From positions 372,001 through 436,000 of the forward strand of contig NZ_JAJJMM010000001.1 of the NCBI RefSeq assembly GCF_020905295.1: DNA of 64,000 nt, written 5' to 3'. The stretch comes from Flavobacterium piscisymbiosum (GTDB taxonomy: Bacteria; Bacteroidota; Bacteroidia; Flavobacteriales; Flavobacteriaceae). The notes under the pieces are model-generated. The model was not told the origin of the DNA, did not search any database, and saw only the letters and a list, made by a program, of their open reading frames with translations. Within the stretch, counting starts at the first letter, position 1; every line of letters begins with the position of its first letter. Shown piece after piece: positions 15,538 through 40,937 of this stretch. A program made the translations under genes and the position numbers.

Positions 15538-16674
15538 TTATTTTTTAAAGAAGTTAACTATAACTTGTCTAATTCTCTTTTTATCTTCTATTGACAAATT
15601 TGATCCCGAAGGTAAACATAGTCCTTTTTCAAATAAATTTTCGGCAATTTTATTACCGTAATAGGGGTGTTTTTCGAAAATTGGCTGTAAATGCATCGGT
15701 TTCCAAAGTGGGCGACTTTCTATATTTGCATTTTCAAGTGCAAGTCTCAAACTTTCTTTATTTCTATTTTTATAAGGTTCAACCAGAATAGTACTTAACC
15801 AATAGTTTGAAAAATAATTTTCATCAATACTCTCAAAAACATCCACTCCTTCAATATTCCTAAATATCTCCTTATAAAAACTATTTATCTTTCTTCTGGA
15901 ATCTACATTTTTATCTAAAATTTTTATCTGCCCCAATCCAACTCCTGCACAAATATTACTCATTCGGTAATTATAGCCTATTTGGCTATGCTGGTAGTGT
16001 ACCGCTTCGTCTTTAGATTGTGTTGCATAAAAAATGGCTCTATTTTTTAATTCTTTTGAATTAATAATTAATGCCCCCCCACTTGAGGTGGTAATTATTT
16101 TATTTCCATTGAATGAAAATATTCCAAAATCTCCAAAGCTCCCGCATTTTTTTCCTTTATAAGAACTTCCTAAAGCTTCGGCACTATCTTCGATAACCTG
16201 AATAAAGTACTTATCGGCAATAGCATGAATTTCATCCACTTTATAAGGATTTCCGTAAAGATGCACTGCTATAATCGCTTTGGGCTTTTTTCCTTTTTTA
16301 ATTCTATCTTTAATTGCGATTTCTAACTGCTCAGGACAAATATTCCAAGTGCCCAATTCGCTATCTACAAAAATTGGGATGGCGCCCTGATACAGAATTG
16401 GATTGGCCGAAGCTGAAAAAGTCATACTTTGACAAATAATCTCATCTCCTTCCTTCACTCCTAACAAAACCAATGCTAAATGAATAGCTGATGTACCTGA
16501 ATTGAGTGCTGATACAAATGACTTCTCATCTAGATAATTTTCTAAAACACTTTCAAATTCATCAACATTTGGACCTCCGGAAGTGATCCAATTTGTTTGT
16601 AAAGCTTTTTGAATATACTCTTGTTCAAAACCGCTTTGTTCAGATAAGGATAAATAAATTCGTTTATTATCCAT
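15538..16674 (-). CDS. DegT/DnrJ/EryC1 sugar aminotransferase (PglE-like)
   Basis: The PLP-dependent fold is clear: TNWITSGGPNVDEFE near 28-42, ALNSGTSAIHLAL at 56-68, DSAEALGSSYKGKKCGSFGD near 163-182 and FNGNKIITTSSGGALI, where K192 is the PLP lysine. The start at 16674 (378 residues) overlaps the cupin gene by 8 bases and is preferred over an upstream in-frame ATG that adds unrelated residues. The WITSGGP...CQSMTFSASANP features match enzymes that aminate 4-keto-6-deoxy-HexNAc. The membrane dehydratase at 11107-13074 could supply that substrate. The gene contains a run of seven G (16074-16080 on the plus strand as C), unusual in this AT-rich DNA. Confidence 0.88.
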   Translation of the reverse strand: MDNKRIYLSLSEQSGFEQEYIQKALQTNWITSGGPNVDEFESVLENYLDEKSFVSALNSGTSAIHLALVLLGVKEGDEIICQSMTFSASANPILYQGAIPIFVDSELGTWNICPEQLEIAIKDRIKKGKKPKAIIAVHLYGNPYKVDEIHAIADKYFIQVIEDSAEALGSSYKGKKCGSFGDFGIFSFNGNKIITTSSGGALIINSKELKNRAIFYATQSKDEAVHYQHSQIGYNYRMSNICAGVGLGQIKILDKNVDSRRKINSFYKEIFRNIEGVDVFESIDENYFSNYWLSTILVEPYKNRNKESLRLALENANIESRPLWKPMHLQPIFEKHPYYGNKIAENLFEKGLCLPSGSNLSIEDKKRIRQVIVNFFKK

Positions 16675-17092
16675 TAATTTTCCAATAATCTGAAGGATAC
16701 CGAACATCATCATCTCCAACATTTACAAGGGGTAACGTTGAAAAAGAAATTAGTTTTGAATCTTTTTCTAAAGATTCTATAGCATTCGCATAACCCGCAG
16801 GAATATGCACTATCTTATTATCATCAGCAGAAACAAAAATAGTTTCTACTGTTAATTCTTTCGAAGGATTTTCCCAGTTTTCAATTTTTATAAAATGAAT
16901 ATTGAAAGAACCGGTTAAACAATAAAAGTTTTTGGTGTCTAATTTATGTCCTTGCCAGGCACGAATAGGATTTTCTTCAGAATTACTAATGATGTAGAAT
17001 CTCTCGATATCCGTGAACTTAAAATCATTAACATACGAAATAGTTCCGCGATGATCGGAGAAATTACCTCCCTGAATTATTTTTGGAATCAT
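16667..17092 (-). CDS. RmlC-like cupin sugar epimerase/ketoisomerase (WxcM/FdtA-like)
   Basis: A single-domain cupin of 141 residues. DHRGTISYVNDF at the start, PIRAWQGHK with the family histidine, and HIPAGYANAIESLEKDSKL correspond to the RmlC-like jelly roll found in WxcM C-terminal domains and sugar 3,4-ketoisomerases. It overlaps both its upstream neighbour (4 bases) and the aminotransferase downstream (8 bases). It therefore probably acts on the same nucleotide sugar as the aminotransferase. Whether it is a 3,5-epimerase or a 3,4-ketoisomerase cannot be decided from sequence. Confidence 0.75.
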   Translation of the reverse strand: MIPKIIQGGNFSDHRGTISYVNDFKFTDIERFYIISNSEENPIRAWQGHKLDTKNFYCLTGSFNIHFIKIENWENPSKELTVETIFVSADDNKIVHIPAGYANAIESLEKDSKLISFSTLPLVNVGDDDVRYPSDYWKING

Positions 17093-27180: not shown

Positions 27181-28197
27181 CTAACTAATGCTTTTTATAA
27201 CATTTTCAAAATTTTCAAAATTTTCAAAATATTTAATCTTATTGTTTGTTAAGCCATTCAAATAGTTTTTATATTTATCTGCAAGACCTATTTCTTTAAA
27301 TTGAAATAAATTAATTAGTGAATAGGTAGGTATTTGATTTTCTTTTACAAAATGCGATAATGATGAAGTAATAATTCCTATGTACATTGAAGAATTTGAA
27401 AATTCAAGAAATTCGGCAGGGATATAAGATGGAATTTCAATATCTACTAGGTGCATCACATTCTCAGGAATTCCTATACGCGGGTGGCCTTTTACTACTA
27501 CAGTCCAATTATGTTTCTTAAAGGACTCTATAATTTTTAACTGTATAGAATCATGACTTACTGGTTCATATATAGAATCTTCACAAGGCGAAATAAAAAA
27601 GATGACAATTGGATTTACATCTTGAATGTTTTTTATTTGATATTTATATAGATCGAAAACAGATTGAGTCAAATCTGGTGCTATTTTCCTAATATTATAT
27701 CTTTTAAAATGAAATTCAGGTATTTTTTCTAAAATTTCCAATTTAAAATTTGCCCCTGTAATAATGAATAAAATAAATTTTAAAATAATTCTTTTGAAGT
27801 TCATTTTTTTTCTATCAAACAAATCAGCTGAAAAATCATAATGATCGACATAATACAACGAATTATTATCAGATAATTTAACTAAGAAAGCAGAAGTAAG
27901 CCAATCTTCAAATCTAGAAAAGAAATAAACATCATTATTAACTACACCTTTAAAATACTTCTTCGCAAAAAAATTAATTCTTTTTCTTTCCTTAAATACT
28001 AACGCAAAATTCTTAATTGATAAATGACCGTAGGGTATAAAAACTAGAGAGTTCAAATTTAAATTTAAGCTTTCTATAAATTTAAAAACATTCTCAACAT
28101 TTACTACATAAACATTAATGATCTTTTTTCCTTTATATTTTTCGTATAAACTTAAGAAGTAAGGAATATCAGCAGGTGCTTGACAAAAAACAATCAT
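27181..28197 (-). CDS. putative GT-B transferase, sialyltransferase/polysialyltransferase-like
   Basis: The protein has 338 residues from the ATG at 28197 (an in-frame ATG at 28227 would overlap the upstream gene by 17 bases). The first strand MIVFCQAPADIPYF and the later VVVKGHPR (234-240), IPSYIPAEFL (255-264) and IGIITSSLSHF suggest a GT-B fold with an HP motif and a serine pair. These are features shared by bacterial sialyltransferase families such as GT52. The classical D/E-D/E-G motif is not obvious. The cell makes a nonulosonic acid from genes just upstream, so this is the best candidate for its transferase. The assignment is an inference. The C-terminus carries three FEN repeats. Confidence 0.5.
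   Translation of the reverse strand: MIVFCQAPADIPYFLSLYEKYKGKKIINVYVVNVENVFKFIESLNLNLNSLVFIPYGHLSIKNFALVFKERKRINFFAKKYFKGVVNNDVYFFSRFEDWLTSAFLVKLSDNNSLYYVDHYDFSADLFDRKKMNFKRIILKFILFIITGANFKLEILEKIPEFHFKRYNIRKIAPDLTQSVFDLYKYQIKNIQDVNPIVIFFISPCEDSIYEPVSHDSIQLKIIESFKKHNWTVVVKGHPRIGIPENVMHLVDIEIPSYIPAEFLEFSNSSMYIGIITSSLSHFVKENQIPTYSLINLFQFKEIGLADKYKNYLNGLTNNKIKYFENFENFENVIKSIS
27202..27228 (-). repeat. tandem 9-base repeat, three perfect copies
   Basis: The plus strand repeats ATTTTCAAA three times without interruption. On the coding strand this reads TTTGAAAAT, encoding FEN three times near the C-terminus of the sialyltransferase-like protein. A change in copy number would keep the reading frame. 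Confidence 0.9.
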
Positions 28198-28210
28198 TTC
28201 AAATCTTTCT

Positions 28211-28780
28211 TCAATAGAATTGACCATTCTCTTTTAAGTATTTAAAGGTTTCTATATCTCTATATTTTATAATTCTATGAGGATTTCCTCCTATCACCGC
28301 ATAATCTGGCACATCTTTTGTCACTACAGTTCCTGAACCTATAACTACACCTTCACCGATTGTTACTCCTGGCACAATGGTAACATTTGTCCCACACCAT
28401 ACAAAATCTTTTATTTCAACAGGCTCAATTAAATCAATATTGTCGTAAGGAATAGAAAATTTGCTCTGATAGTTATGATTTGTGGAAAATATAGTTAATC
28501 CTCTTCCGGTATGAAAAAATTTTCCTATATAAACTCCTCCTGAACATTCAATAATTGTGTCTGATTTTAAATGACTTGTAATATCTATTTTGAATTTAGT
28601 AAAATCACCAGTTGCACTCATTATTTTTAAACCGCCAAAGCCTTGATTAACATAATTGATTTTACATCCACACTTAATTTCTATTCTCTTAATATCTAAC
28701 AATTGTTTATAAATAATAATATTGTTTATAAACAAATCAATTTTTAATCCCAGAATTAATTTTAAAATTAGCTTAACCAT
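28211..28780 (-). CDS. acyltransferase, left-handed beta-helix (WcaF-like)
   Basis: The protein has 189 residues. The C-terminal half shows hexapeptide turns and the block [19 protein letters not shown] followed by [12 protein letters not shown], typical of sugar O-acetyltransferases. FSTNHNY around 100 carries the probable catalytic histidine. The N-terminal 20 residues are hydrophobic. It probably O-acetylates a sugar of the repeat unit using acetyl-CoA. It lies 2 bases after the flippase gene. It could alternatively be an N-acetyltransferase for the amino sugar made by the PglE-like enzyme. Confidence 0.82.
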
Positions 28781-28782
28781 TT

Positions 28783-30036
28783 TTAAATAACATTATACTT
28801 TTTAAATAAACTTAAGGATATTATCAATGATAATATAGACAGAAATAAAAAAGATAGTAGTGAGGCTATTGCAGGTCCATAAATCCCAACAATTGGAATT
28901 AAAATAAACGATAAGACAATAACTAGCACTGCACTTAGCAGAACTAAGATAGTTTTTAGCTTAGTCATTTTAAAATAGTCAATAACTAATCCAGTCGTTG
29001 TGTAGATACCAAAAAAAGCTTGGGCTATACACATAATGTAAATTATAGGCATTGCTGACAGATATTTTTTACCTAAAAAAAAAGGTCCAAAAAAAGACAA
29101 TGCAACACAAAAGAAAATAGAAATTACTAATATTATGACAGAATATATACCTGAAACTTTTAAAATAAAATTCTTACCCTCTCTTTCACTTAATTTTTTA
29201 TATACTAAAGGATAAATTACTTTTATCATATTTGAATTTATCATTACTACAAAAGAAGCAACTCCTGCAGCAGCTGCATACAATCCTACTTCTTTTAATC
29301 CAAAAGAATTTAGTAAAAAATACCTGTCGGACTGATTTAAAACCCATCCAGCTAAAACAGAAATAATTAGAGGTGCTCCATATTTAATAATATATTTAAA
29401 ATGAACTTTATCAAATATAAAATAGAAAGAAGATCCAATTGTACTTAGAAAAAAAAATCTAATAATTAAAACGATAAATTCTGCAAGTACAATAGCTACT
29501 ATCCTAAACTTCCAATCCAAATCAAAAAAAGAAAGGAATATAACTGTTAAGCCAAATCCCAACAAAACAGTAACCGTAGAAATTAATCCAAAACGCGTTG
29601 CTTGAGAATATTGAAAAAGTTCAGTATTATGTATGGAACTAAAAGTTGTTATGAATCCCATAATTGTTGCCATAACAATTACAAAACTATATTGTTCAAA
29701 CATTAAAGAAGCCAATATTGTAAAAATAAAACAAACCGAAAATGAAATTAAAACAAATGAAATTAAACTATTTCTAAACTCTAGATATTTATCTTTTTCA
29801 AGATCTACGATCTCAATTGCTTGTAATCCGTTTGCTGAAAAAGACATTAATGTTGGTAAAAAAAATAGGATACTTGCGTATATACCAATCATTCCATAAT
29901 CTTCAGGGAGTATATGCTTAGTTAAATAAGAGATTGAAAATATTCCAATCGCGGCATTTATAATTGTAAAAATATAATAATTTATAAAATTACGTATTTC
30001 CCTATGATTTATTAAAAATTTTATTTTATTGAACAT
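28783..30036 (-). CDS. wzx: polysaccharide flippase (Wzx, MOP superfamily)
   Basis: About twelve hydrophobic segments over 417 residues, with the N-terminal [30 protein letters not shown]. The motif L..EDYG at the end of the first helix pair is typical for Wzx-type exporters (GxxxxxxLxPxxYG-like). It moves undecaprenyl-linked repeat units across the inner membrane for Wzy polymerisation. The 161-base gap upstream separates it from the nonulosonate genes and shows no convincing promoter or hairpin. Confidence 0.88.
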
Positions 30037-30197: not shown

Positions 30198-30935
30198 TTA
30201 AATGATACTCCATCCACCATCCACCACCAAATTATGTCCCGTTACATAAGATGAATCATCTGTAAGTAAAAAACAGACTGCTGAAACAATATCTCTTGGA
30301 CTTCCCATTCGTTTCAACGGTACTTTTTTATTGTAATTCTCTACAAATGATTCCGGTTGGTTATCAAAAATTCCTCCAGGAGAAACTGTATTTACACGAA
30401 TTTGATATGCTCCATAGTAAGATGCCAAATAACGTGTAAAATTATTTAGTGCACCTTTAATTGCCGAATAAGCAGCTGGCATGGTCATTTCTGTACCTTC
30501 ATAAACTGTAAAATCAGGCCCAACTAATCCGTAGATAGATGACATGTTAATAAGCGACCCAAATCCTTGCTTTTTCATTTGTTCCATTACCACTTGGCAA
30601 CATAGAAAATATCCATTTAAATGCATATCCACATTTTTACGCCATGATTCAAGTGGTATATCCTCAAATTTAGTCCCCCAATCTTTTGTTCTGGGGTAAG
30701 CATTGTTTACCCAGCCATCAATACGATCGTATTTCTCGACTATACTCACTATTCCGTTCTTTATTGAATCTTCATTAGTAATATCAATTACAAAATCATA
30801 ACTATCTTGGTCTTCAAAAAAAATATCAGCTGATATAACTACTGCTCCTTGTTCACGAAAAGTAGAAACCATCTGCTTTCCTAATAATCCATTACCTCCT
30901 GTTACAACTATTACTTTATCTTTTATTGAAAACAT
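30198..30935 (-). CDS. short-chain dehydrogenase/reductase, PtmA-like
   Basis: A classical SDR of 245 residues: VTGGNGLLGKQM at 11-22, NNAYP at 77-81, NMSSIYG with S133, and the catalytic Y156-x3-K160 in AAYSAIKGALNN, then VNTVSPGGIF and YVTGHNLVVDGGW. All catalytic residues are present. It resembles the SDR known as PtmA, which accompanies legionaminic acid genes in Campylobacter. Its substrate there is not firmly known to me. It is the last gene of the nonulosonate cassette, 25 bases after the carbon-nitrogen hydrolase. Confidence 0.85.
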   Translation of the reverse strand: MFSIKDKVIVVTGGNGLLGKQMVSTFREQGAVVISADIFFEDQDSYDFVIDITNEDSIKNGIVSIVEKYDRIDGWVNNAYPRTKDWGTKFEDIPLESWRKNVDMHLNGYFLCCQVVMEQMKKQGFGSLINMSSIYGLVGPDFTVYEGTEMTMPAAYSAIKGALNNFTRYLASYYGAYQIRVNTVSPGGIFDNQPESFVENYNKKVPLKRMGSPRDIVSAVCFLLTDDSSYVTGHNLVVDGGWSII

Positions 30936-30960
30936 CGTTATTATATACTTGTTTAATTAT

Positions 30961-31743
30961 TTAATTATAGAACTCTCTATAAATGCTATTCTTCCTGTCT
31001 TTTTTAATTGGAAAGTTTTTTCGATATTCTATCGCATTTTCTAAATTCAAATCAAAGATTTTTATTTCTTCAAAGATTTCCAAAGGTTCTAACTTTTCTC
31101 CTGTAGGCGAAAAAACACAAGAACTTTCCTCATATTCCAAACCGTTCCCATCAATACCAGTTCGATTAACACCAATCATAAAACTTTGATTTTCTATAGC
31201 TCGTGCATTCAGTAAAGCTCTCCAATGACTCACTCTTCCTTTTGGCCAATTAGCTATATTAAGCAAGATTAAATTCTCCTTCGACAATTCTTGATAAAGC
31301 TCTGGAAATCTTAAATCAAAACAAATACTCAATCCCCAACCACCATTCCAAGGAAGGCTCTTAATCTGATTACCTCCTACAATTAATTCATCTTCTCCAG
31401 CATAAGAAAATAGATGTATTTTTTCATAAGTCCCAGCTATTTCTCCCTTATTATTTACAGCAATGCAACTATTATATTTTTTTTTATCTTTAGAAATCAT
31501 CAATCCAAATACAATATTCATTTGATACTCTTTAGCCATTTTTTGGATAGCTTGAAGAGAACTTGAACTTTCAAAATCTTCTGCCAAAGCCAAATTAGAA
31601 ATAGAAAAACCAGTCAAAGACATCTCAGGAAAAACCACATACTCTACCTTTGGGCTTAAAGACGCAACTATACGTTCAACCTCTTTCAAATTGGCTTGTT
31701 TATCCTCCCAAACTGAATCTAAAGAAACTATAGCTAACTTCAT
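30961..31743 (-). CDS. carbon-nitrogen hydrolase (nitrilase superfamily)
   Basis: The catalytic triad of the nitrilase superfamily is complete: E40 in VVFPEMSLTGF, K108 in TYEKIHLFSY and C141 in LSICFDLRFPELYQ. The 260-residue length fits omega-amidase-like members. The start codon overlaps the stop of the aminotransferase upstream. Such enzymes hydrolyse amides, for example alpha-ketoglutaramate or a side-chain amide, or can act as acyltransferases. An amidohydrolase inside a nonulosonate cassette is unusual, and its substrate is unknown. Confidence 0.88.
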   Translation of the reverse strand: MKLAIVSLDSVWEDKQANLKEVERIVASLSPKVEYVVFPEMSLTGFSISNLALAEDFESSSSLQAIQKMAKEYQMNIVFGLMISKDKKKYNSCIAVNNKGEIAGTYEKIHLFSYAGEDELIVGGNQIKSLPWNGGWGLSICFDLRFPELYQELSKENLILLNIANWPKGRVSHWRALLNARAIENQSFMIGVNRTGIDGNGLEYEESSCVFSPTGEKLEPLEIFEEIKIFDLNLENAIEYRKNFPIKKDRKNSIYREFYN

Positions 31744-33041
31744 TAATTATATTTTCTGAATACTGGTTTAATGACTGGAGATTTTAGATATACTTCCAAT
31801 CCACTTTCTAATGCTTTTTTATAAATTGTCAAAGCATGTTTCACGGCCGATAATGTCATATCCAATTCTATCTCCTGATGCGAATAAGAAACTGCTATAT
31901 ATGGCATCATTATCTTTTTTTCTAACATTTCCTGAGCAAACAAAGTACGCATTGCCAACGACACATTATGATCCTTATCTTTTGCAACATAGTTTGGAGA
32001 ACAAGGATATCCTTCTACATAAAATTGCTCATGAATTCCCAATTCCTTAGAAATATTATTTATTCCGGTAACTAATTTATTACCATAATTCCAAAAATGA
32101 TCTACTACGAGGTCTCTTTTTAATATTTCCATCGTTTTAATAAAAGCTCCTAATGCACTCATTTCTGCACCATGAGTTGTCGATGTCAAAAATATTCTCT
32201 CGGCTCCTTCATCCAATATTCCTCCAATCTGCATAATTTCTCTTTTCCCTGCCAAAGCTGCAACAGCAAAACCATTAGCCATAGCTTTTCCAAATGTACA
32301 CAAATCAGGTTCTATTCCATAATAAGTTTGAGCACCTTGCAAGTCCCATCTGAAACCAGTAATCATTTCATCAATTATAAAAACTGTTCCATTTGCTTTG
32401 CATAAAGTCTGAACTTCGCGAAGGAAATTGGCTGTTGGCTCTAACGTCGTTGCCGCTTCAAGCATTACTGCCGCAATTTGATTTGGATATTCATCAAAAA
32501 GTGCTTTTAACGAATCTATATTATTATAATTAAATTTAAGAGTAAGTTGACTCGCTTCTTCAACCGTACCTCTAGTAAGAACTGTTGAACCTATGAACCA
32601 ATCATCATATGAGAAAAAAGGCTGTTCTACAGGAACTGCGACCATCTTTCTACCAGTATAGGCTCTCGCTAATTTCATAGCTGCTGTTGTAACGGCAGAA
32701 CCATGTTTAGCAAATTTGACCATATCTACAGACGGGATTAACTCGCACAATAATTCAGCTGCTTTCAACTCTGTCACAGAAGCCCTTGTAAGATTATTAC
32801 CTTTTAAAATCTCTTCATAACACGCATCGGCTATTTCCTTATTTCCATAACCAATATTAACCGATCGTAATCCCATTCCATAATCCAAGTACTTATTCCC
32901 TTCTGGCGAAAAAACGTAAGCTCCTTCTCCTCTTTCTAAAATAGAAGGTGCATTTGATGGAAATTGATCATCTCCTCTTGAATAGGTATGTGCTCCTCCT
33001 GGTATTACATTATGCAGTCTTTGTGAATATGATTTTTCCAT
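31743..33041 (-). CDS. class III aminotransferase, glutamate-1-semialdehyde aminomutase-like
   Basis: The protein has 432 residues from the ATG at 33041, chosen because MEKSYSQRLHNVIPGGAHTY is the family start and the longer frame runs into the preceding gene. FIIDEMITGFRW supplies the PLP-ring aspartate region and CTFGKAMANGF the PLP lysine. GGAHTYSRGDDQFP matches the sugar-cluster branch of the aminomutase-like family rather than the haem enzyme HemL. It follows the SpsF-like gene by 10 bases. It probably transfers an amino group on a sugar or acyl precursor, but the substrate is unknown. Confidence 0.85.
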   Translation of the reverse strand: MEKSYSQRLHNVIPGGAHTYSRGDDQFPSNAPSILERGEGAYVFSPEGNKYLDYGMGLRSVNIGYGNKEIADACYEEILKGNNLTRASVTELKAAELLCELIPSVDMVKFAKHGSAVTTAAMKLARAYTGRKMVAVPVEQPFFSYDDWFIGSTVLTRGTVEEASQLTLKFNYNNIDSLKALFDEYPNQIAAVMLEAATTLEPTANFLREVQTLCKANGTVFIIDEMITGFRWDLQGAQTYYGIEPDLCTFGKAMANGFAVAALAGKREIMQIGGILDEGAERIFLTSTTHGAEMSALGAFIKTMEILKRDLVVDHFWNYGNKLVTGINNISKELGIHEQFYVEGYPCSPNYVAKDKDHNVSLAMRTLFAQEMLEKKIMMPYIAVSYSHQEIELDMTLSAVKHALTIYKKALESGLEVYLKSPVIKPVFRKYN

Positions 33042-33051
33042 ATCAAAAAAA

Positions 33052-33804
33052 TTAGTTTTCTTCTTGTTTTTGTTTGTTAAAATTTGACCAATAAATATCA
33101 TCTAGATGCTTATTTAATTGATCCCACTCGTTTTTAATTATCGAATCAATCAAGACTTTGTCAGAAACATTTAAAACATCAATATTTGATATCACCTTTT
33201 TAAAAAAGTCAGCATCTGGTTCATAATCTAAAGTCATTCTGATTTTTGCTACTTCATCTGCAAATTTTAATTGAATAATATCAATCTCATCTTTATTAAA
33301 AATTTTCCCCCATCCGGTTTCTAATTTATTAGATTCAATTCCTTTTAAAGAATTCTCTAAAAAGTCCTTGCTATAACCAGTACTATTCATACCTAAAGGC
33401 AGTCCAGAAGTATATACCATTTTTGAACCGTTCATCAAGCTATCTATTACTAATTTTGATGCTTCAGTAGAACATAAGATATCATCCCCATCTATGGAAA
33501 CTATAAAATCTACATCAAATTTACGAGCACATTGCAAATGACGAAAAGGAATATTTTCGTCAGAGCCATAAAATACTTCTACTTCTACATCATGTTCGTC
33601 AAATATTGTTTCAAATTTTTTGTTTTCAGGCTTTATCGAAGTTGTAATAAATATTTTCAATTCATTTTTCTCAATAACTTCTTTAAAGGCAAAGGAAAAG
33701 CGCTCTACAAGATGTTTTATCAACGGTTTTGAATTTACTTCTATCAAATGCTTCTCACTTAATCTGGTTGAACCTAATCTCGCGGTAATAAAAATTCCTA
33801 TCAT
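33052..33804 (-). CDS. SpsF-like cytidylyltransferase family protein
   Basis: The N-terminus IFITARLGSTRLSEKHL (5-21) is the nucleotide loop of the SpsF/KdsB-like group, and FIVSIDGDDIL near 116-126 carries the metal-binding acids. MTLDYEPDADF is the family C-terminal motif. Canonical NeuA/LegF enzymes instead have ARGGSKG. This is the only CMP-type nucleotidyltransferase in the cassette, so it may activate the nonulosonate. It may equally serve a separate product of the aminomutase-like enzyme next to it. Its 250-residue length is normal. Confidence 0.78.
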   Translation of the reverse strand: MIGIFITARLGSTRLSEKHLIEVNSKPLIKHLVERFSFAFKEVIEKNELKIFITTSIKPENKKFETIFDEHDVEVEVFYGSDENIPFRHLQCARKFDVDFIVSIDGDDILCSTEASKLVIDSLMNGSKMVYTSGLPLGMNSTGYSKDFLENSLKGIESNKLETGWGKIFNKDEIDIIQLKFADEVAKIRMTLDYEPDADFFKKVISNIDVLNVSDKVLIDSIIKNEWDQLNKHLDDIYWSNFNKQKQEEN

Positions 33805-34823
33805 TACAATTTTTCAATGACATTATTATCATCCGAACTTTCAACAGCATATAAAACTTTCAACACCTGATGATCATGTTCTAATGTATTTGGAAAGTCA
33901 CCTTCTCTTTTGGCCGCCTTTAAAAAAGCTGCCATCTCATCTATATACATCTGCTCTGTTATATTTTTATTATATCCAGTTTGAGCAGATATAGTTTCAT
34001 ACTTTATTTCATCCCAATTACTTGTTTCCGGGTCATAAATTTTAATCATATTATCATCCCAATTCCAATATAACTGTTTTTTGTCTCCATTGATAGTTAA
34101 TCGTCTGGTTGCATATCTAGAAACAACATCAACTGATAAATTAAATATTGAATTACCATAATCCATTAATAAATTGTATGTTTCATCGATATGCTCTGCC
34201 CCTTTTATTTGAATTGCATTTTTATAGAGACCAACAACTCTCTTTGGAAATCCTAAAACTAAAGTAATCCATGTTAATTCAAAAGGAACAATCTCTCTTC
34301 CTCCACCTGTTTCTTTATTAGAAACATAATATTCATTAACCTCTTCATACGTATGCCAATCAGGAAGATATTGTCCTGAATGATATAAAAAGTTAGATAT
34401 TATACCAAGATCCCCATTTTTTACAATTTCAGCTATTTTTTTTATTGCCGGATGAAAAAATAAAGTACATGATGGTGCTAAACATATACCTTTTTCTCTA
34501 GACTCTATAATCATTTCTTCAAAATCAGTATTAACTACACTCGCTTCAATAAAAGCTGGTATATTTAATTCTAAAGCCTTCTTCATATAAATATGATGAA
34601 TATCTGGTGGTAAGGAAATAACAAAAGCATCAATTTTAAAATTTGATAGAGCATCTTCTAAACTACTCACAACTTCTATTTGATACTTCTCCACAGATTC
34701 GCTTCTCCTGTCATCTCTTTTATCAAATCCGATTATATTTTTTATTCCTAGAGCTTGTAAATTCCTCACCCTTCTTTTACCCATGGAACCTAATCCAATT
34801 ATGAGTATAAAATTTTTCATCAC
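33804..34823 (-). CDS. Gfo/Idh/MocA family oxidoreductase, atypical active site
   Basis: The N-terminal Rossmann fold is clear: ILIIGLGSMGKRRVRNLQAL at 6-25, and VISLPPDIHHIYMKKALEL at 68-86. The family's EKP motif, which carries the catalytic lysine, is replaced by EAS at 93-95. The usual GGGxxxDxxxH-type segment reads GGGREIVPFELTW. It may therefore bind a dinucleotide without the standard dehydrogenase chemistry, or use other residues. It overlaps the PtmE-like gene by 4 bases and the SpsF-like gene by one. Its place in the cassette implies a role in making or modifying the nonulosonate. Confidence 0.82.
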   Translation of the reverse strand: MMKNFILIIGLGSMGKRRVRNLQALGIKNIIGFDKRDDRRSESVEKYQIEVVSSLEDALSNFKIDAFVISLPPDIHHIYMKKALELNIPAFIEASVVNTDFEEMIIESREKGICLAPSCTLFFHPAIKKIAEIVKNGDLGIISNFLYHSGQYLPDWHTYEEVNEYYVSNKETGGGREIVPFELTWITLVLGFPKRVVGLYKNAIQIKGAEHIDETYNLLMDYGNSIFNLSVDVVSRYATRRLTINGDKKQLYWNWDDNMIKIYDPETSNWDEIKYETISAQTGYNKNITEQMYIDEMAAFLKAAKREGDFPNTLEHDHQVLKVLYAVESSDDNNVIEKL

Positions 34824-35869
34824 TTAAATTTTATATAGTTTATATCTTTTTGTGCCTTCTCAAAATCCTCATGTTTACCAACATCTAACCAATACCCAAC
34901 AAATGGATAGGAAATCACTTTTAAATTATTTTTAATTAGTTCTTCCATCAAATCAGTGGCATTAAAGAAAATATCCTTCGGAATATATTTAAGCATTTCT
35001 TTTTTCATTAAATAAATCCCTCCATTGGAATAGTAAGTATATGTTGGCTTTTCTTTAAAACTTTTAACCAGACCATTATTAGTTTCTAAAACGGCATATG
35101 GAATACTAACCTGATATGGAATAGTCAAAACTGCCAAATCAGCATCTTGTTTTATAAATTCTAAAAAAAATTGTTCGTAATCTATATTTGTTAATAAATC
35201 AGAATTAGTAACTAAAATATAATCATGTTCGAAATTATTAATTTTAGAAACAGCGCCAATTGTACCTAAAGGCTCACTTTCCCAAACATATTCTATTTTA
35301 ATGTTTTTATCATTTCCTTTTCCAAAATGGGTTTCGATTTGTTCTCCTAAATATTTTACAGATACCCAAAAATCATCGATTCCAAATAATGTTAAACGGT
35401 CGAGGTTATGTTCCATAATTGCCTTATCACCAACTTTTAACAATGGTTTTGGTTTAGAATCAGTTAGAGGCTGTAAACGTTGTCCTCTACCACCTGCCAT
35501 AATTACAGCATCAATAGGCAAATAAGACCTAATATTTCTAAAATTAATAACATTTACAACTTTATGGTTTTCGTCAACTACGGGTACAATTCTGAAATCC
35601 CCTTCACGATACTCAATAATTTTTGCTAAATTATTTTCCCCCTTAGTTATATATCGTGGATTATCCTGAATAATTTCATCAATATAACTATCAATGGTGA
35701 AACCTTTAATCAATCCTCTTCTTACATCTCCATCAGTAAGTGCACCAATTAATTTATCCTCTTGATTAACTACAAAAAGAATGGCATCTTGCGACAATTC
35801 ATTTAATAAAAGTAGTGCTTCTTTTACTTTACTTCCAGAAAGAATTAGATGGTCTTTGTAAATTCTCAT
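34820..35869 (-). CDS. CBS-domain nucleotidyltransferase (PtmE-like)
   Basis: Residues 1-115 form a CBS pair (ALTDGDVRRGLIKG and RIVPVVDE are recognisable). Residues 120-349 form a sugar nucleotidyltransferase with GGRGQRLQPLT at 126-136, NSDLL near the metal site, and KEKPTYTYYSNGGIYLM. The domain order matches PtmE, reported in Campylobacter to make GDP-GlcN(Ac) at the start of the GDP-linked legionaminic pathway. It overlaps neuC by 4 bases. The GDP preference is inferred from the family. Confidence 0.87.
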   Translation of the reverse strand: MRIYKDHLILSGSKVKEALLLLNELSQDAILFVVNQEDKLIGALTDGDVRRGLIKGFTIDSYIDEIIQDNPRYITKGENNLAKIIEYREGDFRIVPVVDENHKVVNVINFRNIRSYLPIDAVIMAGGRGQRLQPLTDSKPKPLLKVGDKAIMEHNLDRLTLFGIDDFWVSVKYLGEQIETHFGKGNDKNIKIEYVWESEPLGTIGAVSKINNFEHDYILVTNSDLLTNIDYEQFFLEFIKQDADLAVLTIPYQVSIPYAVLETNNGLVKSFKEKPTYTYYSNGGIYLMKKEMLKYIPKDIFFNATDLMEELIKNNLKVISYPFVGYWLDVGKHEDFEKAQKDINYIKFK

Positions 35870-36969
35870 AAAAATTCCTTTATAATATTAATTATATTAT
35901 TGGCTGCATGATCTCTAAAATATATATTATCACCGTCGTATTTTTCCAAGTTTAATGCTTTATCAAAAGCTAAAACAATACCTGATTCTTCAAACTTGCA
36001 GTCTATAATATTATTACTTTGAGCTCTTCCTTTCTGTCTATCTCCAACATTTATAACATATTTACCAAATGAAGCTGCTTCTAAAATACCACTTGATGTA
36101 TTGCCAATTAGAATTTTAGAATAATGCATTGCGGAAAAATAATTAATCTTACCAAAATTTTCAATTAATAGGATTTTTTCAGGTTTTTCTGTCTTTAGTT
36201 TTTGAATTTCCTCCCTATATATTGATCCTTGTGTATCTGCATTTGGCATTGTAATAACTACAAATATTTTCTCAGAAATAGTAGCCAAAGCATTTTTCAT
36301 TTCCTGTGCGTATTGAATATTATCATTGGACGAGATAGTTTCCGGATGAAAGGTAACTAATGCAAATTCTTCATTAGGGATAATAAACTTTTCATAAAAA
36401 GCTTGTTTTTCTACAGGAGTAAAACTCATAATGTCGCTCAAACTTAACGATCCAACAGTAAAAATGTTGTTATCTGAATTTGTTAAACACCTAACTTTAT
36501 CACTAAACGTTTCTGTAGCAGTAAAATGTAAGAATGATGCTAAAGTAATTTGATGGCGATAAATATTATCTATTGCTCCTAATGTAGTTTCTCCTCCATG
36601 CAAATGAGCAAATTTTACTTCAAAAGGAATTCCTGCCTGTACGGCCGCACTCATTTCAAAACGATCTCCTAAACATAGTACTAAATCGTATTGATGCATT
36701 TTCCAAAAATCTGCAAATTTTAATACCGTTAATCCATAAGAAGAAGCAATCGATTGCTCGTCATCATTTGAAATGAGAGAAGAAATTTGATGAATACAAT
36801 TGTATTTGTCTTTTTCTATATCTGTTACTGTATATCCATGCAATCTTGACAAATGAGTTCCAAAAGCTACAATCTCTATTTCAAAAAAAGAATCATTTTT
36901 CATTTTATGAAGCAAAGGAAGATATATTCCGTAATCAGCTCTTGAACTAGTTAATACCCCTATTTTCAT
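35866..36969 (-). CDS. neuC: hydrolysing NDP-sugar 2-epimerase (NeuC/LegG)
   Basis: The enzyme releases the nucleotide and inverts C2 of a UDP- or GDP-HexNAc derivative, giving the ManNAc-type sugar used by NeuB. GVLTSSRADYGIYLPLL at 4-20, GDRFEMSAA at 101-109, HLHGGETTLGAIDN at 122-135 and GNTSSGILEAASFGKYVI with INVGDRQKGR are characteristic. The 367-residue length is normal. With LegB and LegC upstream the substrate is more likely the 4-acetamido-6-deoxy sugar (LegG role) than plain UDP-GlcNAc. The stop and start overlap those of its neighbours. Confidence 0.93.
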   Translation of the reverse strand: MKIGVLTSSRADYGIYLPLLHKMKNDSFFEIEIVAFGTHLSRLHGYTVTDIEKDKYNCIHQISSLISNDDEQSIASSYGLTVLKFADFWKMHQYDLVLCLGDRFEMSAAVQAGIPFEVKFAHLHGGETTLGAIDNIYRHQITLASFLHFTATETFSDKVRCLTNSDNNIFTVGSLSLSDIMSFTPVEKQAFYEKFIIPNEEFALVTFHPETISSNDNIQYAQEMKNALATISEKIFVVITMPNADTQGSIYREEIQKLKTEKPEKILLIENFGKINYFSAMHYSKILIGNTSSGILEAASFGKYVINVGDRQKGRAQSNNIIDCKFEESGIVLAFDKALNLEKYDGDNIYFRDHAANNIINIIKEFL

Positions 36970-37988
36970 CCTATATCAGAAAATAAAAGTTTATCAAACT
37001 CATTTTTATCAACGACCAATTTTTTTCCAACTATATTTTCCCACTCCATCGGAGATATTCCATCTCCAGGTCTCAATGAAACTATATCACTATCAGTGAT
37101 TGTATGTCCTTTTTCTAATCTCTTATTTATAAAAATGCTTTTCCTGGCAATAGCAATATTTTTAGTTTCACTTTCACTTGGTTTTTTGTCTCCATCTCCA
37201 CTGATAGCCAATTCTATATTACGAATTGCCTTCACCATATTTTTCAATTCATCAGGCTCTAAAGAGGCCACATGATCAGGCCCAGGTAATGTTCTGTCTA
37301 ATGTAAAGTGTTTTTCTATTATTCTGGCTCCTATTGCAACTGCTGCTATTGGTACTTCAATACCAAGTGTATGATCTGAATATCCTATTTCTACATCAAA
37401 AGTCTTTTGAATAGCTAACATTGCTTTTAGATTTACATCCTTCATTGGAGTTGGATATTCTGTATTACAATGCAGAATTGAAATTTTTTCTTTACTAATA
37501 CCAAATTTCATTAATACCTCTAAAGCATTCTTTATTTCTATTTCTGAGCACATACCTGTCGACATAATAACGGGTTTCCCACATAAAGCAACCGCTTTTA
37601 AATAAGGATAATTTGTTATTTCTCCACTAGGAATTTTAAAAAAAGAAAGTCCTAAATCATTTAAATAATTCACTCCTTCCACATCAAAGGCTGTTGAGAA
37701 AAATTTAATATTTCTTTCAGAGCAATAAGACATTAGCTGCAAATGATCTTCATGACTCAACTCTAAATTTTTCAACATAGCATATTGAGAATCATCGCCG
37801 TCATTAACATTAACGCTCTGGTATTCTGCTTTTTTAGCCAATTTACTAACTAAACTATCTGCTTTAAAAGTTTGAAACTTTACATAATCTACACCCGCAT
37901 CTACTGCAGCATCAATTAGTTTCATTGCTACATTAATATCACCATTATGATTTACCCCAGCTTCAGCTATAATAACTACTTTATTCAT
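36966..37988 (-). CDS. neuB: nonulosonate (N-acetylneuraminate/legionaminate) synthase
   Basis: NeuB-type enzymes condense phosphoenolpyruvate with a ManNAc-like sugar to make a nine-carbon keto acid. The barrel shows EAGVNHNGD at 9-17, VKFQTFKADSLV near 36-47, KIPSGEITNYPYL, LHCNTEYPTP and GYSDHTLG. Residues from about 280 form the SAF/antifreeze-like domain (LRPGDGISPMEW). The 340-residue length is normal. Given the neighbours, legionaminic acid or an isomer is the likely product; the sequence alone does not exclude N-acetylneuraminate. Confidence 0.94.
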   Translation of the reverse strand: MNKVVIIAEAGVNHNGDINVAMKLIDAAVDAGVDYVKFQTFKADSLVSKLAKKAEYQSVNVNDGDDSQYAMLKNLELSHEDHLQLMSYCSERNIKFFSTAFDVEGVNYLNDLGLSFFKIPSGEITNYPYLKAVALCGKPVIMSTGMCSEIEIKNALEVLMKFGISKEKISILHCNTEYPTPMKDVNLKAMLAIQKTFDVEIGYSDHTLGIEVPIAAVAIGARIIEKHFTLDRTLPGPDHVASLEPDELKNMVKAIRNIELAISGDGDKKPSESETKNIAIARKSIFINKRLEKGHTITDSDIVSLRPGDGISPMEWENIVGKKLVVDKNEFDKLLFSDIG

Positions 37989-37991
37989 ATT

Positions 37992-38633
37992 TTAAATTAT
38001 TCGACCAGGATTTCCAACTACTTTCTTACCGTCAGGCACATCATTGATTATGACACTGCCTGCGCCTATTATAACATCTTTACCAATTACAATACCTTGC
38101 TTAATTACAGAATTAGCTCCTACAAAAGTCCTTTCTCCAACTGTGACATTACCTGCTAAAACAGCTCCGGGTGCTATATGTACTGCATCATACAAAACAC
38201 ATTCATGCTCAATTATACAACCCGTATTTAAAATTACATTTTTCCCTATTGATGCAAATGCATTAACGACTACATTTTTATTAATAAAGGTCCCACTATC
38301 TATTGAAGCATACTTTGACAAATTAGACGTTTTATGAATAATTGTTTGAGTTGTTTTTCCTTTGGCCTCGATTAAACTGGCAACATTTTGTCTTATCTTA
38401 TTATTTCCTATACCAATTGCGAAAGAAACGTAACTTCTCCAGCCTACAAAACTTTCTTCATTTTCAAATCCTAAATACGATAAATTGTAAGGATTGCTGG
38501 CTGATTCTTCTTTTTCTGAATATCCAATCAATTCATATCCATTTTCTAAAATGGTTTCTGCCACAACATAAGCATGTCCTGAATACCCAATAAGAATTAT
38601 CTTTTTATCTGACACTGCTTGGTATATTGACAA
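37992..38633 (-). CDS. sugar O/N-acetyltransferase (NeuD/LegH/PglD-like)
   Basis: The N-terminal nucleotide-sugar binding fold (KIILIGYSGHAYVVAETIL) is followed by a left-handed beta-helix of hexapeptides. HECVLYDAVHIAPGA carries the catalytic histidine, and GNPGRII ends the protein at residue 213. This matches PglD/LegH enzymes that N-acetylate a UDP- or GDP-4-amino sugar with acetyl-CoA. It overlaps the LegC gene by 29 bases, the largest overlap in the cassette, and no later ATG suits the family start. Confidence 0.88.
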   Translation of the reverse strand: MSIYQAVSDKKIILIGYSGHAYVVAETILENGYELIGYSEKEESASNPYNLSYLGFENEESFVGWRSYVSFAIGIGNNKIRQNVASLIEAKGKTTQTIIHKTSNLSKYASIDSGTFINKNVVVNAFASIGKNVILNTGCIIEHECVLYDAVHIAPGAVLAGNVTVGERTFVGANSVIKQGIVIGKDVIIGAGSVIINDVPDGKKVVGNPGRII

Positions 38634-39747
38634 TTCTTTCTTCTAAAAATTCAGCATTAATTTGTAAATCTTTTTGACAATTCGCATACATAGGTAAGCG
38701 ATACATTAATTGCCAAATAGGTCGTGTCATTACATTATTTGCATTTGTTGTTTCCAAAAACAAATCTCTTTCAAACTTATCCTCTAACTCTACACACATC
38801 AACCAATAATTTGCTTTAGTTTCTGGTGTCTCCGTTCTAAATTTTATACCTTTAGTTGCAAAAAAAGATTCATATTCTTTTGCTAATTGCCTTTTATTTA
38901 CTAAAAAACTATCCAATTGTTCCAATTGAGCACATGCTAATGCTGCATTCAAATTAGGCATTCTGAAATTATACCCCATCTCATCATGAACATATTCATA
39001 AGGGTGCGGGATTTTAGCTGTAGTCGTTAAGTATTTTGCTTTTTCACCTAATTTAAGATCATTACTTACTATAGCTCCACCTCCGCCAGAGGTTACTATT
39101 TTATTTCCATTAAATGAAAAACTACCAACTTTACCAAAACTCCCTGTTGGTTTACCCTTATACTCACTTCCTAATGACTCAGCTGCATCTTCAACTACTG
39201 GAATTTTCCAAATATTGCAAATTGTCATCAATTCTTCTAAATGTACTGGAAAACCGAAAGTATGCATTGGCAAACATGCGCCAATTTTTTTTCCAGTTTT
39301 TTTATTATAACAAGCATCCTCACGTAAATCGCCAAATTCCTCTAAAAAAGAAACAACAGCTTTAGGAGATAATCCCATAGTATCTATATCTACATCTAAA
39401 AAAACTGGAGTAGCATTTTGATATGCAATTGCATTCGCAGTTGCAACAAAAGTTAATGCTTGAGTTAGCACTTCATCACCTGATTCTACTCCTACTAGAC
39501 GCAAAGCTACTTGAATTGCTGCAGTACCATTAACAACAGCAACAGCCTTTTGTGTATCTGTTATAGCTTGCATCATTACTTCAAACTGATTAACATATGC
39601 ACCTACAGACGAAACAAATGTTGAATCTATTGTTTCTAATAAGTATTTTTTTTCATTACCTGCAAAGTGAGGAACATGAAGAGGTATAAAATCATCTGTT
39701 TTATACTGTTGTTTTATAAAAGATACAACTGTATTAATACTACTCAT
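38605..39747 (-). CDS. legC: LegC-type sugar 4-aminotransferase
   Basis: A DegT-family PLP enzyme of 380 residues. PLHVPHFAGNEKKYL and STFVSSVGAYVNQFE near 42-56 are the LegC signature. VNGTAAIQVALRL, EDAAESLGSEYKG at 186-198 and FNGNKIVTSGGGG with K216 form the PLP site. It aminates the 4-keto sugar made by LegB. It lies 2 bases after LegB and overlaps LegH, as expected for consecutive steps. Confidence 0.93.
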   Translation of the reverse strand: MSSINTVVSFIKQQYKTDDFIPLHVPHFAGNEKKYLLETIDSTFVSSVGAYVNQFEVMMQAITDTQKAVAVVNGTAAIQVALRLVGVESGDEVLTQALTFVATANAIAYQNATPVFLDVDIDTMGLSPKAVVSFLEEFGDLREDACYNKKTGKKIGACLPMHTFGFPVHLEELMTICNIWKIPVVEDAAESLGSEYKGKPTGSFGKVGSFSFNGNKIVTSGGGGAIVSNDLKLGEKAKYLTTTAKIPHPYEYVHDEMGYNFRMPNLNAALACAQLEQLDSFLVNKRQLAKEYESFFATKGIKFRTETPETKANYWLMCVELEDKFERDLFLETTNANNVMTRPIWQLMYRLPMYANCQKDLQINAEFLEERIVNIPSSVR

Positions 39748-39749
39748 AA

Positions 39750-40937
39750 TTACATTTTTGAATCTAAATATTTACCTGTTTCCTTATGTCCAAAATCTGG
39801 TATCATTTTATGAAACAAATTTACTATTTCTTCTTTTTTCCAACTTCTATTTGACTTCATAAGTCCTATTTCGGTAGTAAATTCTTCTAACTTTTGAGCA
39901 GAGAAGTTTGGTTCATTTTTGATTACTCCCAAATTTTCAAATCTATCCATGTCTAAAATTTCATTATGGGTAAAAAACTCCTCAAAATCTTTTTCGCCAG
40001 TAGTATCACTGCCTGTAAATAAACATGGCCATTTTTTTTGATTTATAAGCTCTTCTACACTATTTCTAGCTTCTTCTTCGGATTTACATAAATAAGCTTC
40101 ATAACCAATTTCAGCTAAATATTTAACTGCTATATCTGCAAAAGAAATTAAATGTAAATTTTCATTTAACTTAGGAAAAAAGATATCTCTATTTTCTCCA
40201 AAAATGCATGACATTAAACAAAGTTCACCTGATTCTTTTGGAGTAACAAAGTATCGTTTAATATCATTAGGTGCAACAATTGGTTGTTTTTTAATAATAC
40301 GCTGATTAAACCCGTGCAACAAAGAACCATCTGAAAATGCAACATTTGCAAAACGTGCTGTAGAAATTTTAATATGATGACTTTTTCGCATTAAATACAT
40401 TTCCATTATTCTTTTTGAAGCACCCATCATATTAACCGGATTAGCAGCTTTATCTGTTGAGACACAAAAGTATTTTTTGGTTCCATTATCAATTGACTGT
40501 TGTAATGTTTTATCAGTATTAAAAATATTTACATCTATCATTCGCATTAAGGTAAATGCATCTTTTTCGCTACGAACATGTTTTAAAGCAGATAGATTTA
40601 AGACGTAATCATATTTACCATCTGCCTTAATGAAGGCATCATACTCAATTGATCCTATATCTAATGCAAAAGTTTGAAAATCTCCATCAATATAACCGTA
40701 AGAACTTCTTAAATCTCTAACAAGTTCCACCATATTGTTTTCACTAATATCTACTACGTGCAACTTAAGCGGTTTACGCTTAAATATTTCTTTTGTAACA
40801 GCTTGACCAATCGAACCTGCACCGCCTATAACTAAAAAAGAAGAATTATTAATGATTTTGAATAACTGATCTTCATAAGCAAAAATATCTTTCTCAAATA
40901 TTTCTTCGTTTCTACCTATTAATTTTAAAATGTTCAT
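39750..40937 (-). CDS. legB: NDP-GlcNAc 4,6-dehydratase (LegB-like)
   Basis: A soluble CapD-family enzyme of 395 residues: GGAGSIGQ at 38-45, ALKHVRSEKD near 117-126, CVSTDKAANP at 158-167 and MMGASKR at 170-176. The C-terminal extension of about 100 residues and the sequence SALKHVRSEKD set it apart from the membrane WbpM type at 11107-13074. It takes the first committed step of legionaminic-type sugar synthesis, giving a 4-keto-6-deoxy HexNAc. It starts the cassette 33 bases after the Wzz-like gene. Confidence 0.9.
   Translation of the reverse strand: MNILKLIGRNEEIFEKDIFAYEDQLFKIINNSSFLVIGGAGSIGQAVTKEIFKRKPLKLHVVDISENNMVELVRDLRSSYGYIDGDFQTFALDIGSIEYDAFIKADGKYDYVLNLSALKHVRSEKDAFTLMRMIDVNIFNTDKTLQQSIDNGTKKYFCVSTDKAANPVNMMGASKRIMEMYLMRKSHHIKISTARFANVAFSDGSLLHGFNQRIIKKQPIVAPNDIKRYFVTPKESGELCLMSCIFGENRDIFFPKLNENLHLISFADIAVKYLAEIGYEAYLCKSEEEARNSVEELINQKKWPCLFTGSDTTGEKDFEEFFTHNEILDMDRFENLGVIKNEPNFSAQKLEEFTTEIGLMKSNRSWKKEEIVNLFHKMIPDFGHKETGKYLDSKM

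What the first reader, a model, noticed from the sequence alone, without database searches (positions are those of the whole stretch)
30198..40937. Extended nonulosonic acid cassette without a canonical CMP-nonulosonate synthetase
LegB, LegC, LegH, NeuB, NeuC and a PtmE-like protein form a full route to a legionaminic-type acid, in one tightly overlapping series. No NeuA/LegF with the ARGGSKG motif is present. The only candidate for CMP activation is an SpsF-like protein with ARLGSTRL. Five further genes then follow with no settled role in this pathway. The set may make an unusual nonulosonate or use a different activating enzyme.
Basis: partly seen in the sequence, partly recalled or inferred. 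Interest (0 to 1): 0.82.

Follow-up and report, generated by a model that had tools for sequence, protein, structure and literature searches.

The report
Legionaminic-acid operon with swapped activating enzyme
A Flavobacterium-like genome carries a full gene set for a legionaminic-type surface sugar in which the usual activating enzyme is replaced by one from a different subfamily, with extra genes that probably add a further amino group to the sugar.

Summary
In detail: window 30198-40937 is an eleven-gene, same-strand legionaminic-type operon (LegB, LegC, LegH, LegI, LegG, PtmE, PtmF-like, SpsF-like cytidylyltransferase, class III aminotransferase, CN hydrolase, PtmA-like SDR). The "missing" CMP-nonulosonate synthetase is most likely the SpsF-like protein. 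It sits in the LegF slot; among 80 named loci with the same aminotransferase, 58 have a NeuA nearby, 18 an SpsF-like protein, 4 neither, none both. In a second, partly overlapping sample, 2 of 22 scored, Pse-like loci do have both. Eight of 18 SpsF-type genomes show only this enzyme and KdsB. A NeuA-type enzyme exists about 31 kb away in this genome, but fused to a KdsC-like phosphatase and beside its own NeuB. SpsF as last enzyme of a legionaminic pathway is already in print for Bacillus subtilis. PtmF and PtmA are ordinary leg-cluster members; the aminotransferase and CN hydrolase are extras that recur in nonulosonate clusters of several phyla. Best reading: a dehydrogenase plus a glutamine-driven transaminase, pulled forward by an omega-amidase, add a third amine, most likely at C8. 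That step is inferred. Unexplained: SpsF-like and NeuA have swapped repeatedly, and SpsF-like comes with PtmF in 17 of 18 loci.

The parts
39750..40937 (-). LegB, NDP-GlcNAc 4,6-dehydratase
   Evidence: 3pvz E 1.6e-209; FnlA and PseB models far below cut-off
38605..39747 (-). LegC, PLP aminotransferase (DegT family)
   Evidence: TIGR04181 526 bits, cut-off 420
37992..38633 (-). LegH/NeuD, hexapeptide acetyltransferase
   Evidence: TIGR03570 199 bits, cut-off 160.8
36966..37988 (-). LegI/NeuB, nonulosonate synthase
   Evidence: TIGR03569 472 bits, cut-off 399.65
35866..36969 (-). LegG/NeuC, hydrolysing 2-epimerase
   Evidence: TIGR03568 365 bits, cut-off 235.9
34820..35869 (-). PtmE-like sugar-1-phosphate nucleotidyltransferase with CBS domain
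   Evidence: PF00483 138 bits plus CBS; PtmE by position in leg clusters
33804..34823 (-). PtmF-like Gfo/Idh/MocA oxidoreductase
   Evidence: PF01408 42 bits; a PtmF-like protein next to the SpsF-like gene in 17 of 18 SpsF-type loci
33052..33804 (-). SpsF-like cytidylyltransferase in the LegF position; proposed CMP-nonulosonate synthetase
31743..33101 (-). Class III PLP aminotransferase (PRK06209 family; start perhaps at 33041, as many homologues are 432 aa)
   Evidence: NF004856 641 bits, cut-off 486; GSAM/class III transaminase fold
30961..31743 (-). CN hydrolase (Nit/YafV type), proposed omega-amidase
   Evidence: PF00795 125 bits; PRK10438 149 bits, below its cut-off 249; candidate Glu40, Lys108, Cys141 read from the sequence (triad recalled)
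30198..30935 (-). PtmA-like short-chain dehydrogenase
   Evidence: NF006619 269 bits, cut-off 255; PtmA model NF050062 187 bits, below its cut-off 350; a PtmA-like protein within 6 genes of the aminotransferase at 66 of 79 loci
28783..30036 (-). Flippase-like protein directly downstream (context, not part of the sugar pathway)
   Evidence: PF01943 55 bits

Best explanation
The cassette makes a CMP-activated legionaminic-type nonulosonic acid carrying an extra amine, for the surface polysaccharide encoded around it. PtmE, LegB, LegC, LegH, LegG and LegI build the free legionaminic acid (assigned by family). The SpsF-like protein replaces LegF and makes the CMP sugar (strong indirect evidence). 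Between LegI and activation a dehydrogenase (PtmA-like, perhaps with PtmF) oxidises a hydroxyl, most likely C8 (next to the C9 methyl, so a methyl ketone). The class III aminotransferase turns the ketone into an amine with glutamine as donor, and the CN hydrolase destroys the by-product 2-oxoglutaramate so that the step cannot run back. Predicted product: CMP-8-amino-8-deoxy-legionaminic acid or an N-acyl derivative. The transaminase step, its position C8 and the donor are inference.
For: Activator: the position is that of LegF (order ptmA-legF-ptmF-ptmE in Plesiomonas). Of 80 named aminotransferase loci, 58 have NeuA, 18 SpsF-like, 4 neither, 0 both within 6 same-strand genes (L126 added by eye). 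F. segetis has the same operon (nine shared proteins 69-89% identical) with NeuA where F. limi and the window have PtmF + SpsF-like. Eight of 18 SpsF-type genomes show exactly two CTP_transf_3 proteins, KdsB and this one (coordinates). Invariant A8, R9, S12, R14, L15, the GDD at 106-108 and D193, D197 align for the most part with 6oew and, in the first half, with KdsB. B. subtilis spsF mutants still make Leg but do not bring it to the spore surface (PMC7439481 passages). Transaminase: a CMP synthetase lies within 6 genes in 76 of 80 named loci; in the class sample it is beside (13) or fused to (3) an SpsF-like domain in 16 of 17 loci L045-L061, none with a PtmE label, and P0152 is another fusion; so it should act on the nonulosonate, not on the GDP-sugar supply. 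PtmA-like SDR near it in 66 of 79 loci; CN hydrolase in 25 of 79, in 24 as the next gene. A 2-oxoglutaramate ratchet by omega-amidases is described (PMC6302742 passages). An 8-amino-3,5,7,8,9-pentadeoxynonulosonate is known from Flexibacter maritimus O-polysaccharide (PMC3210612 passages).
Against: No biochemistry. In the class sample 2 of 22 scored loci (L051, L057, Pse-like) hold both an SpsF-like domain and a NeuA-like protein (31-33% to the reference) within six ORFs, so there the SpsF-like domain need not be the only activator. In B. subtilis the spsF deletion could not be complemented. L107's SpsF-like protein is divergent (31%). PtmA and PtmF also occur in a leg cluster without this aminotransferase (Plesiomonas), so they do not prove a keto step for amination. 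L. pneumophila Sg6/12 O-antigen clusters hold a gene annotated as GSA aminomutase beside a cytidylyltransferase, while a title in the same paper's references gives non-1 serogroup LPS as a 5,7-diamino sugar with no 8-amino; whether that gene is of this family was not tested. The F. maritimus gene cluster was not inspected and its sugar is manno (Pse-like). CN hydrolase is not near in 54 of 79 loci. PRK10438 and PtmA models are below cut-off.
Confidence: 0.55

Rival explanations
1. The SpsF-like protein is the CMP-legionaminate synthetase, but the aminotransferase, CN hydrolase, PtmF and PtmA work at the front end, supplying the amino-sugar phosphate that PtmE turns into a GDP sugar.
For: The Plesiomonas authors place PtmA in the first step, the GDP-GlcNAc segment, citing Schoenhofen 2009 (passage; that paper itself was not seen). 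GSA aminomutase chemistry formally resembles fructosamine/glucosamine interconversion (inference).
Against: The aminotransferase also sits in 17 class-sample loci without a PtmE label within the stretch fetched, one of them with a PseG over its cut-off, and is fused to the cytidylyltransferase in three. The position of the recalled catalytic Glu406 of GSA aminomutase is not kept in the alignment with the genome's own HemL.
Confidence: 0.15
2. The NeuA-KdsC-type fusion about 31 kb away activates the legionaminic acid; the SpsF-like protein does something else.
For: It lies in the same polysaccharide region on the same strand; F. limi and P. hartonius also have a NeuA, 39 and 12 kb away. In L051 and L057 an SpsF-like domain and a NeuA-like protein lie in one cluster.
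Against: It is fused to a KdsC-type phosphatase (TIGR01670 128.5 over 107) and beside its own NeuB, as expected for a 9-phosphate route; in F. limi the far NeuA also lies with its own NeuB and NeuC. In 16 of 18 SpsF-type genomes no NeuA was recognised.
Confidence: 0.08
3. PtmF and PtmA invert C8 (8-epilegionaminic acid) and the aminotransferase acts elsewhere, for example at C4 or on a substituent.
For: Oxidation-reduction pairs suit epimerisation; 4- and 8-epimers of Leg exist (PMC9912281 passage).
Against: PtmF is absent near 42 of 57 NeuA-type aminotransferase loci, so the pair is not a general partner of the enzyme. Natural 4-amino nonulosonates were not searched for.
Confidence: 0.15

Closest known systems
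Plesiomonas (and Campylobacter, Vibrio) legionaminic ptm/leg clusters
   Same: LegB, LegC, LegH, LegI, LegG, PtmE, PtmF, PtmA and much of their order (Plesiomonas table)
   Different: LegF is a NeuA-type enzyme there; no class III aminotransferase or CN hydrolase in that table
Bacillus subtilis Sps legionaminic pathway
   Same: SpsF-type cytidylyltransferase proposed as last enzyme, from mutants and in silico work (PMC7439481 passages)
   Different: UDP-linked route of six named enzymes; no class III aminotransferase named in the passages read; spsF complementation failed there
Vibrio B9-25K2 Pse cluster
   Same: SpsF-like domain proposed to replace an absent NeuA (PMC7371886, section 8)
   Different: fused to an aldo-keto reductase, Pse pathway; not tested biochemically
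Kdo8N pathway of Shewanella (KdnA/KdnB recalled; the sugar itself)
   Same: oxidation then transamination of a free ulosonic acid before CMP activation (recalled)
   Different: eight-carbon sugar, other enzyme families (recalled)
Leptospira cytidylyltransferase 6oew
   Different: 24% identity; the entry title names no substrate

Membership tests
Legionaminic acid biosynthesis cluster | LegB, LegC, LegH, LegG, LegI together | tested here: met
Legionaminic acid biosynthesis cluster | product is legionaminic acid | not testable with these tools
   needs mass spectrometry and NMR
NeuA/LegF CMP-nonulosonate synthetase | kinship with the NeuA clade, ARGGSKG-type motif | tested here: not met
   motif ARLGSTRL; tree puts it apart from 15 NeuA rows (99*) and together with SpsF-type rows (98*) (quick tree, two long NeuA rows)
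SpsF-type cytidylyltransferase | kinship with SpsF-like proteins of nonulosonate clusters | tested here: met
   B. subtilis SpsF itself was not compared
SpsF-type cytidylyltransferase | CTP-dependent activation of a nonulosonate | not testable with these tools
   enzyme assay needed
KdsB (CMP-Kdo synthetase) | over the KdsB model cut-offs | tested here: not met
   best 31.8 bits against 193; the genome has a separate KdsB
GSA aminomutase (HemL) | over the hemL model cut-off | tested here: not met
   TIGR00713 194 bits against 527; a HemL-like 428-aa protein lies at C1:2394088
PRK06209 class III aminotransferase | NF004856 cut-off and PLP lysine | tested here: met
   641 against 486; K252 invariant in 24 rows (its role as PLP lysine by family knowledge)
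omega-amidase (YafV/Nit2) | over the PRK10438 cut-off | tested here: not met
   149 against 249: best match but below cut-off, so the function is inferred
PtmA | over the NF050062 cut-off | tested here: not met
   187 against 350; over NF006619 instead

The most novel reading that the evidence does not exclude
A widespread, undescribed route makes 8-amino nonulosonic acids (SDR + class III transaminase + omega-amidase) in legionaminic and pseudaminic-like clusters of several phyla, and PtmF plus the SpsF-like protein form one exchangeable activating unit that has repeatedly traded places with NeuA, so that the two proteins act together, perhaps on a differently oxidised or epimeric sugar.
Probability: 0.3. 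Interest if true: 0.68.

Novelty: new variant of a known kind. Interest (0 to 1): 0.5.

Why it matters
It gives candidate genes for amino-nonulosonic acids, a class known chemically; no paper assigning such genes turned up (open-licence PMC papers only). It points to a likely annotation trap: the transaminase is labelled glutamate-1-semialdehyde aminomutase and the activator a spore-coat protein. It also warns that searching genomes for NeuA alone can miss nonulosonate producers.

Tried and rejected
Ideas dropped: KdsB identity; HemL identity; 'the SpsF-like protein is tied to the aminotransferase' (L041/L093 has one PtmF/SpsF-like/PtmA set with it and one without, and 58 of 80 aminotransferase loci use NeuA). 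The Tenacibaculum (Flexibacter) maritimum O-antigen gene paper PMC9796276 is not held, and no locus of that species is among the 80 named. Literature searches without a paper. Pfam and PDB gave nothing for the 348-aa protein at 27181-28227.
Full report
What is there. The window lies at C1:372001-436000 of a 6.49 Mb genome. A genome of its genus (G065) has a contig of the same length as the named Flavobacterium limi contig, so the host is very likely Flavobacterium. Eleven minus-strand genes from 40937 down to 30198 follow each other closely: LegB, LegC, LegH, LegI, LegG, PtmE, a PtmF-like Gfo/Idh protein, an SpsF-like cytidylyltransferase, a class III aminotransferase, a CN hydrolase and a PtmA-like SDR. 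Around them is a large polysaccharide region; by reading the translations it holds many glycosyltransferase-like and export genes, and a flippase-like and a Wzz-like protein match Pfam.

Search for a canonical activator. The genome has three CTP_transf_3 proteins: KdsB, the cassette's own, and a 388-aa NeuA-type protein 1.3 kb outside the window and about 31 kb from the cassette's edge. The last has motif RKNSKGIPGKN, is fused to a KdsC-type phosphatase and adjoins a second NeuB. A phosphatase fusion suits a 9-phosphate route such as KDN, not legionaminic acid (inference from known pathways).

The LegF position. In Plesiomonas the order is ptmA-legF-ptmF-ptmE (PMC4481668, section 24 read). One genome-contig scan with an alignment of the aminotransferase gave 80 named loci, the best of 579 confirmed. 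Within six same-strand ORFs of the aminotransferase, 57 of 79 scored loci have a NeuA, 18 an SpsF-like protein, 4 neither, none both. L126, lost by ORF overlap, is a NeuA locus, which gives 58, 18 and 4 of 80. In F. segetis the same operon, its nine shared proteins 69-89% identical to the window's, has NeuA where F. limi and the window have PtmF plus SpsF-like. A result against: in the second sample below, 2 of 22 scored loci (L051, L057, both Pse-like) have an SpsF-like domain and a NeuA-like protein within six ORFs. For the legionaminic cassettes I read the SpsF-like protein as the CMP-nonulosonate synthetase.

Genomes that depend on it. PF02348 was searched in the 18 genomes with the SpsF-type cassette: 51 matches, classified by BLAST or by coordinates. 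A canonical NeuA was recognised in 2 of 18: F. limi, with its own NeuB and NeuC alongside, and Pedobacter hartonius. Eight of 18 have exactly two matches, KdsB and the cassette protein, among them the isolates Chryseobacterium taiwanense and Pedobacter montanisoli. Four matches stay unclassified.

Repeated exchange. On a quick tree of 80 aminotransferases (79 loci and the window) the NeuA/SpsF label needs at least 13 changes. A PtmF-like protein is next to the SpsF-like gene in 17 of 18 loci (the other, L079, is cut by a contig end) and near the aminotransferase in 15 of 57 NeuA loci. In 10 independent pairs on starred branches PtmF goes with the SpsF label in 8.2 on average, against it in none, and does not differ in 1.8 (median p 0.008, range 0.002-0.031). 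This linkage is not explained.

The aminotransferase. It belongs to NF004856 (641 bits, cut-off 486), not to the hemL model, and the genome has a separate HemL. Its model (mean pLDDT 85) has the fold of GSA aminomutases and class III transaminases. At E 1e-120 the family is in 24 of 247 genomes of the class and 2 of 199 of the family, the window's own included. Of 24 loci fetched from the class sample, 17 (L045-L061) are Pse-like or unclassified: in 13 the aminotransferase lies beside, and in 3 it is fused to, an SpsF-like domain; L052 is cut by the contig end. One 690-aa fusion is also in the protein database (P0152). One neighbour passed the PseG model (L046, 182.5 over 153.6), another tested did not (L048). 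As no PtmE label appears in these 17 stretches, the aminotransferase should act on the nonulosonate rather than on the GDP-sugar supply.

Oxidoreductase and amidase partners. A PtmA-like SDR is within six genes in 66 of 79 named loci; a CN hydrolase in 25 of 79, in 24 as the next gene. In the class sample 20 of 22 scored loci have a PtmA-like SDR or an aldo-keto reductase within six ORFs; the two without (L052, L061) are cut by contig ends. Omega-amidases that remove 2-oxoglutaramate make glutamine transamination irreversible (PMC6302742, passages); YafV is listed with an omega-amidase family in PMC3223725 (passages). The cassette's CN hydrolase is most like the YafV-type model PRK10438 but below its cut-off (149 against 249).

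Why C8. The free hydroxyls on the chain of legionaminic acid are at C4 and C8; oxidation at C8 gives a methyl ketone, a common class III transaminase substrate (established chemistry, recalled). An 8-amino-3,5,7,8,9-pentadeoxynonulosonic acid is known from Flexibacter maritimus (PMC3210612, passages). Against this, L. pneumophila Sg6/12 clusters carry an annotated GSA aminomutase beside a cytidylyltransferase (PMC3694923, section 10 part 1 read), whereas a title in its references gives a sugar without 8-amino; the family of that gene was not tested. The step is inferred.

What is known and new. SpsF as last enzyme of a legionaminic pathway is in print for B. subtilis, from mutants and in silico work, with spsF complementation not achieved (PMC7439481, passages), and proposed for Vibrio B9-25K2 (PMC7371886, section 8 read). 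The same Vibrio paper mentions a 'second aminotransferase' in Aliivibrio Leg clusters and an unidentified nonulosonate (passages); whether that enzyme is of this family was not checked. I found no paper that gives this aminotransferase/CN hydrolase set a role in nonulosonate clusters, which cover open-licence PMC only. Verdict: a real operon, a gap that is probably filled, and a new variant of a known kind with a testable amination proposal.

Noticed in passing
window 27181-28227 (-): 348-aa protein without Pfam or PDB match, with a KGHPR and two SS motifs as in bacterial sialyltransferases (motif recalled); candidate nonulosonate transferase. A 28% identical protein follows a relative of the same acetyltransferase in Capnocytophaga felis L084.
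   Followed up: partly
L012:8693-10721 (C1:368692-370720), left of the window: Second nonulosonate set: NeuB-like synthase plus NeuA fused to a KdsC-type phosphatase, beside a pyruvyl-transferase-like gene.
   Followed up: partly
L041/L093: Two PtmF/SpsF-like/PtmA sets in one cluster, one with and one without the aminotransferase.
   Followed up: no
L051, L057: Pse-like clusters with both an SpsF-like domain and a NeuA-like protein within six ORFs of the aminotransferase; which one activates the sugar is open.
   Followed up: no
L138:12142-14689 (Legionella feeleii): WbuX, HisH and WbuZ/HisF-type amidation genes follow the aminotransferase and PtmA; ORFs of matching lengths recur at several other loci (by length only).
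   Followed up: partly
L050, L051, L061, P0152: Aminotransferase fused to a cytidylyltransferase domain.
   Followed up: partly
window 15538-17092 (-): DegT aminotransferase beside a weak FdtA-like protein (below its cut-off), suggesting a dTDP-3-amino sugar in the same region.
   Followed up: no
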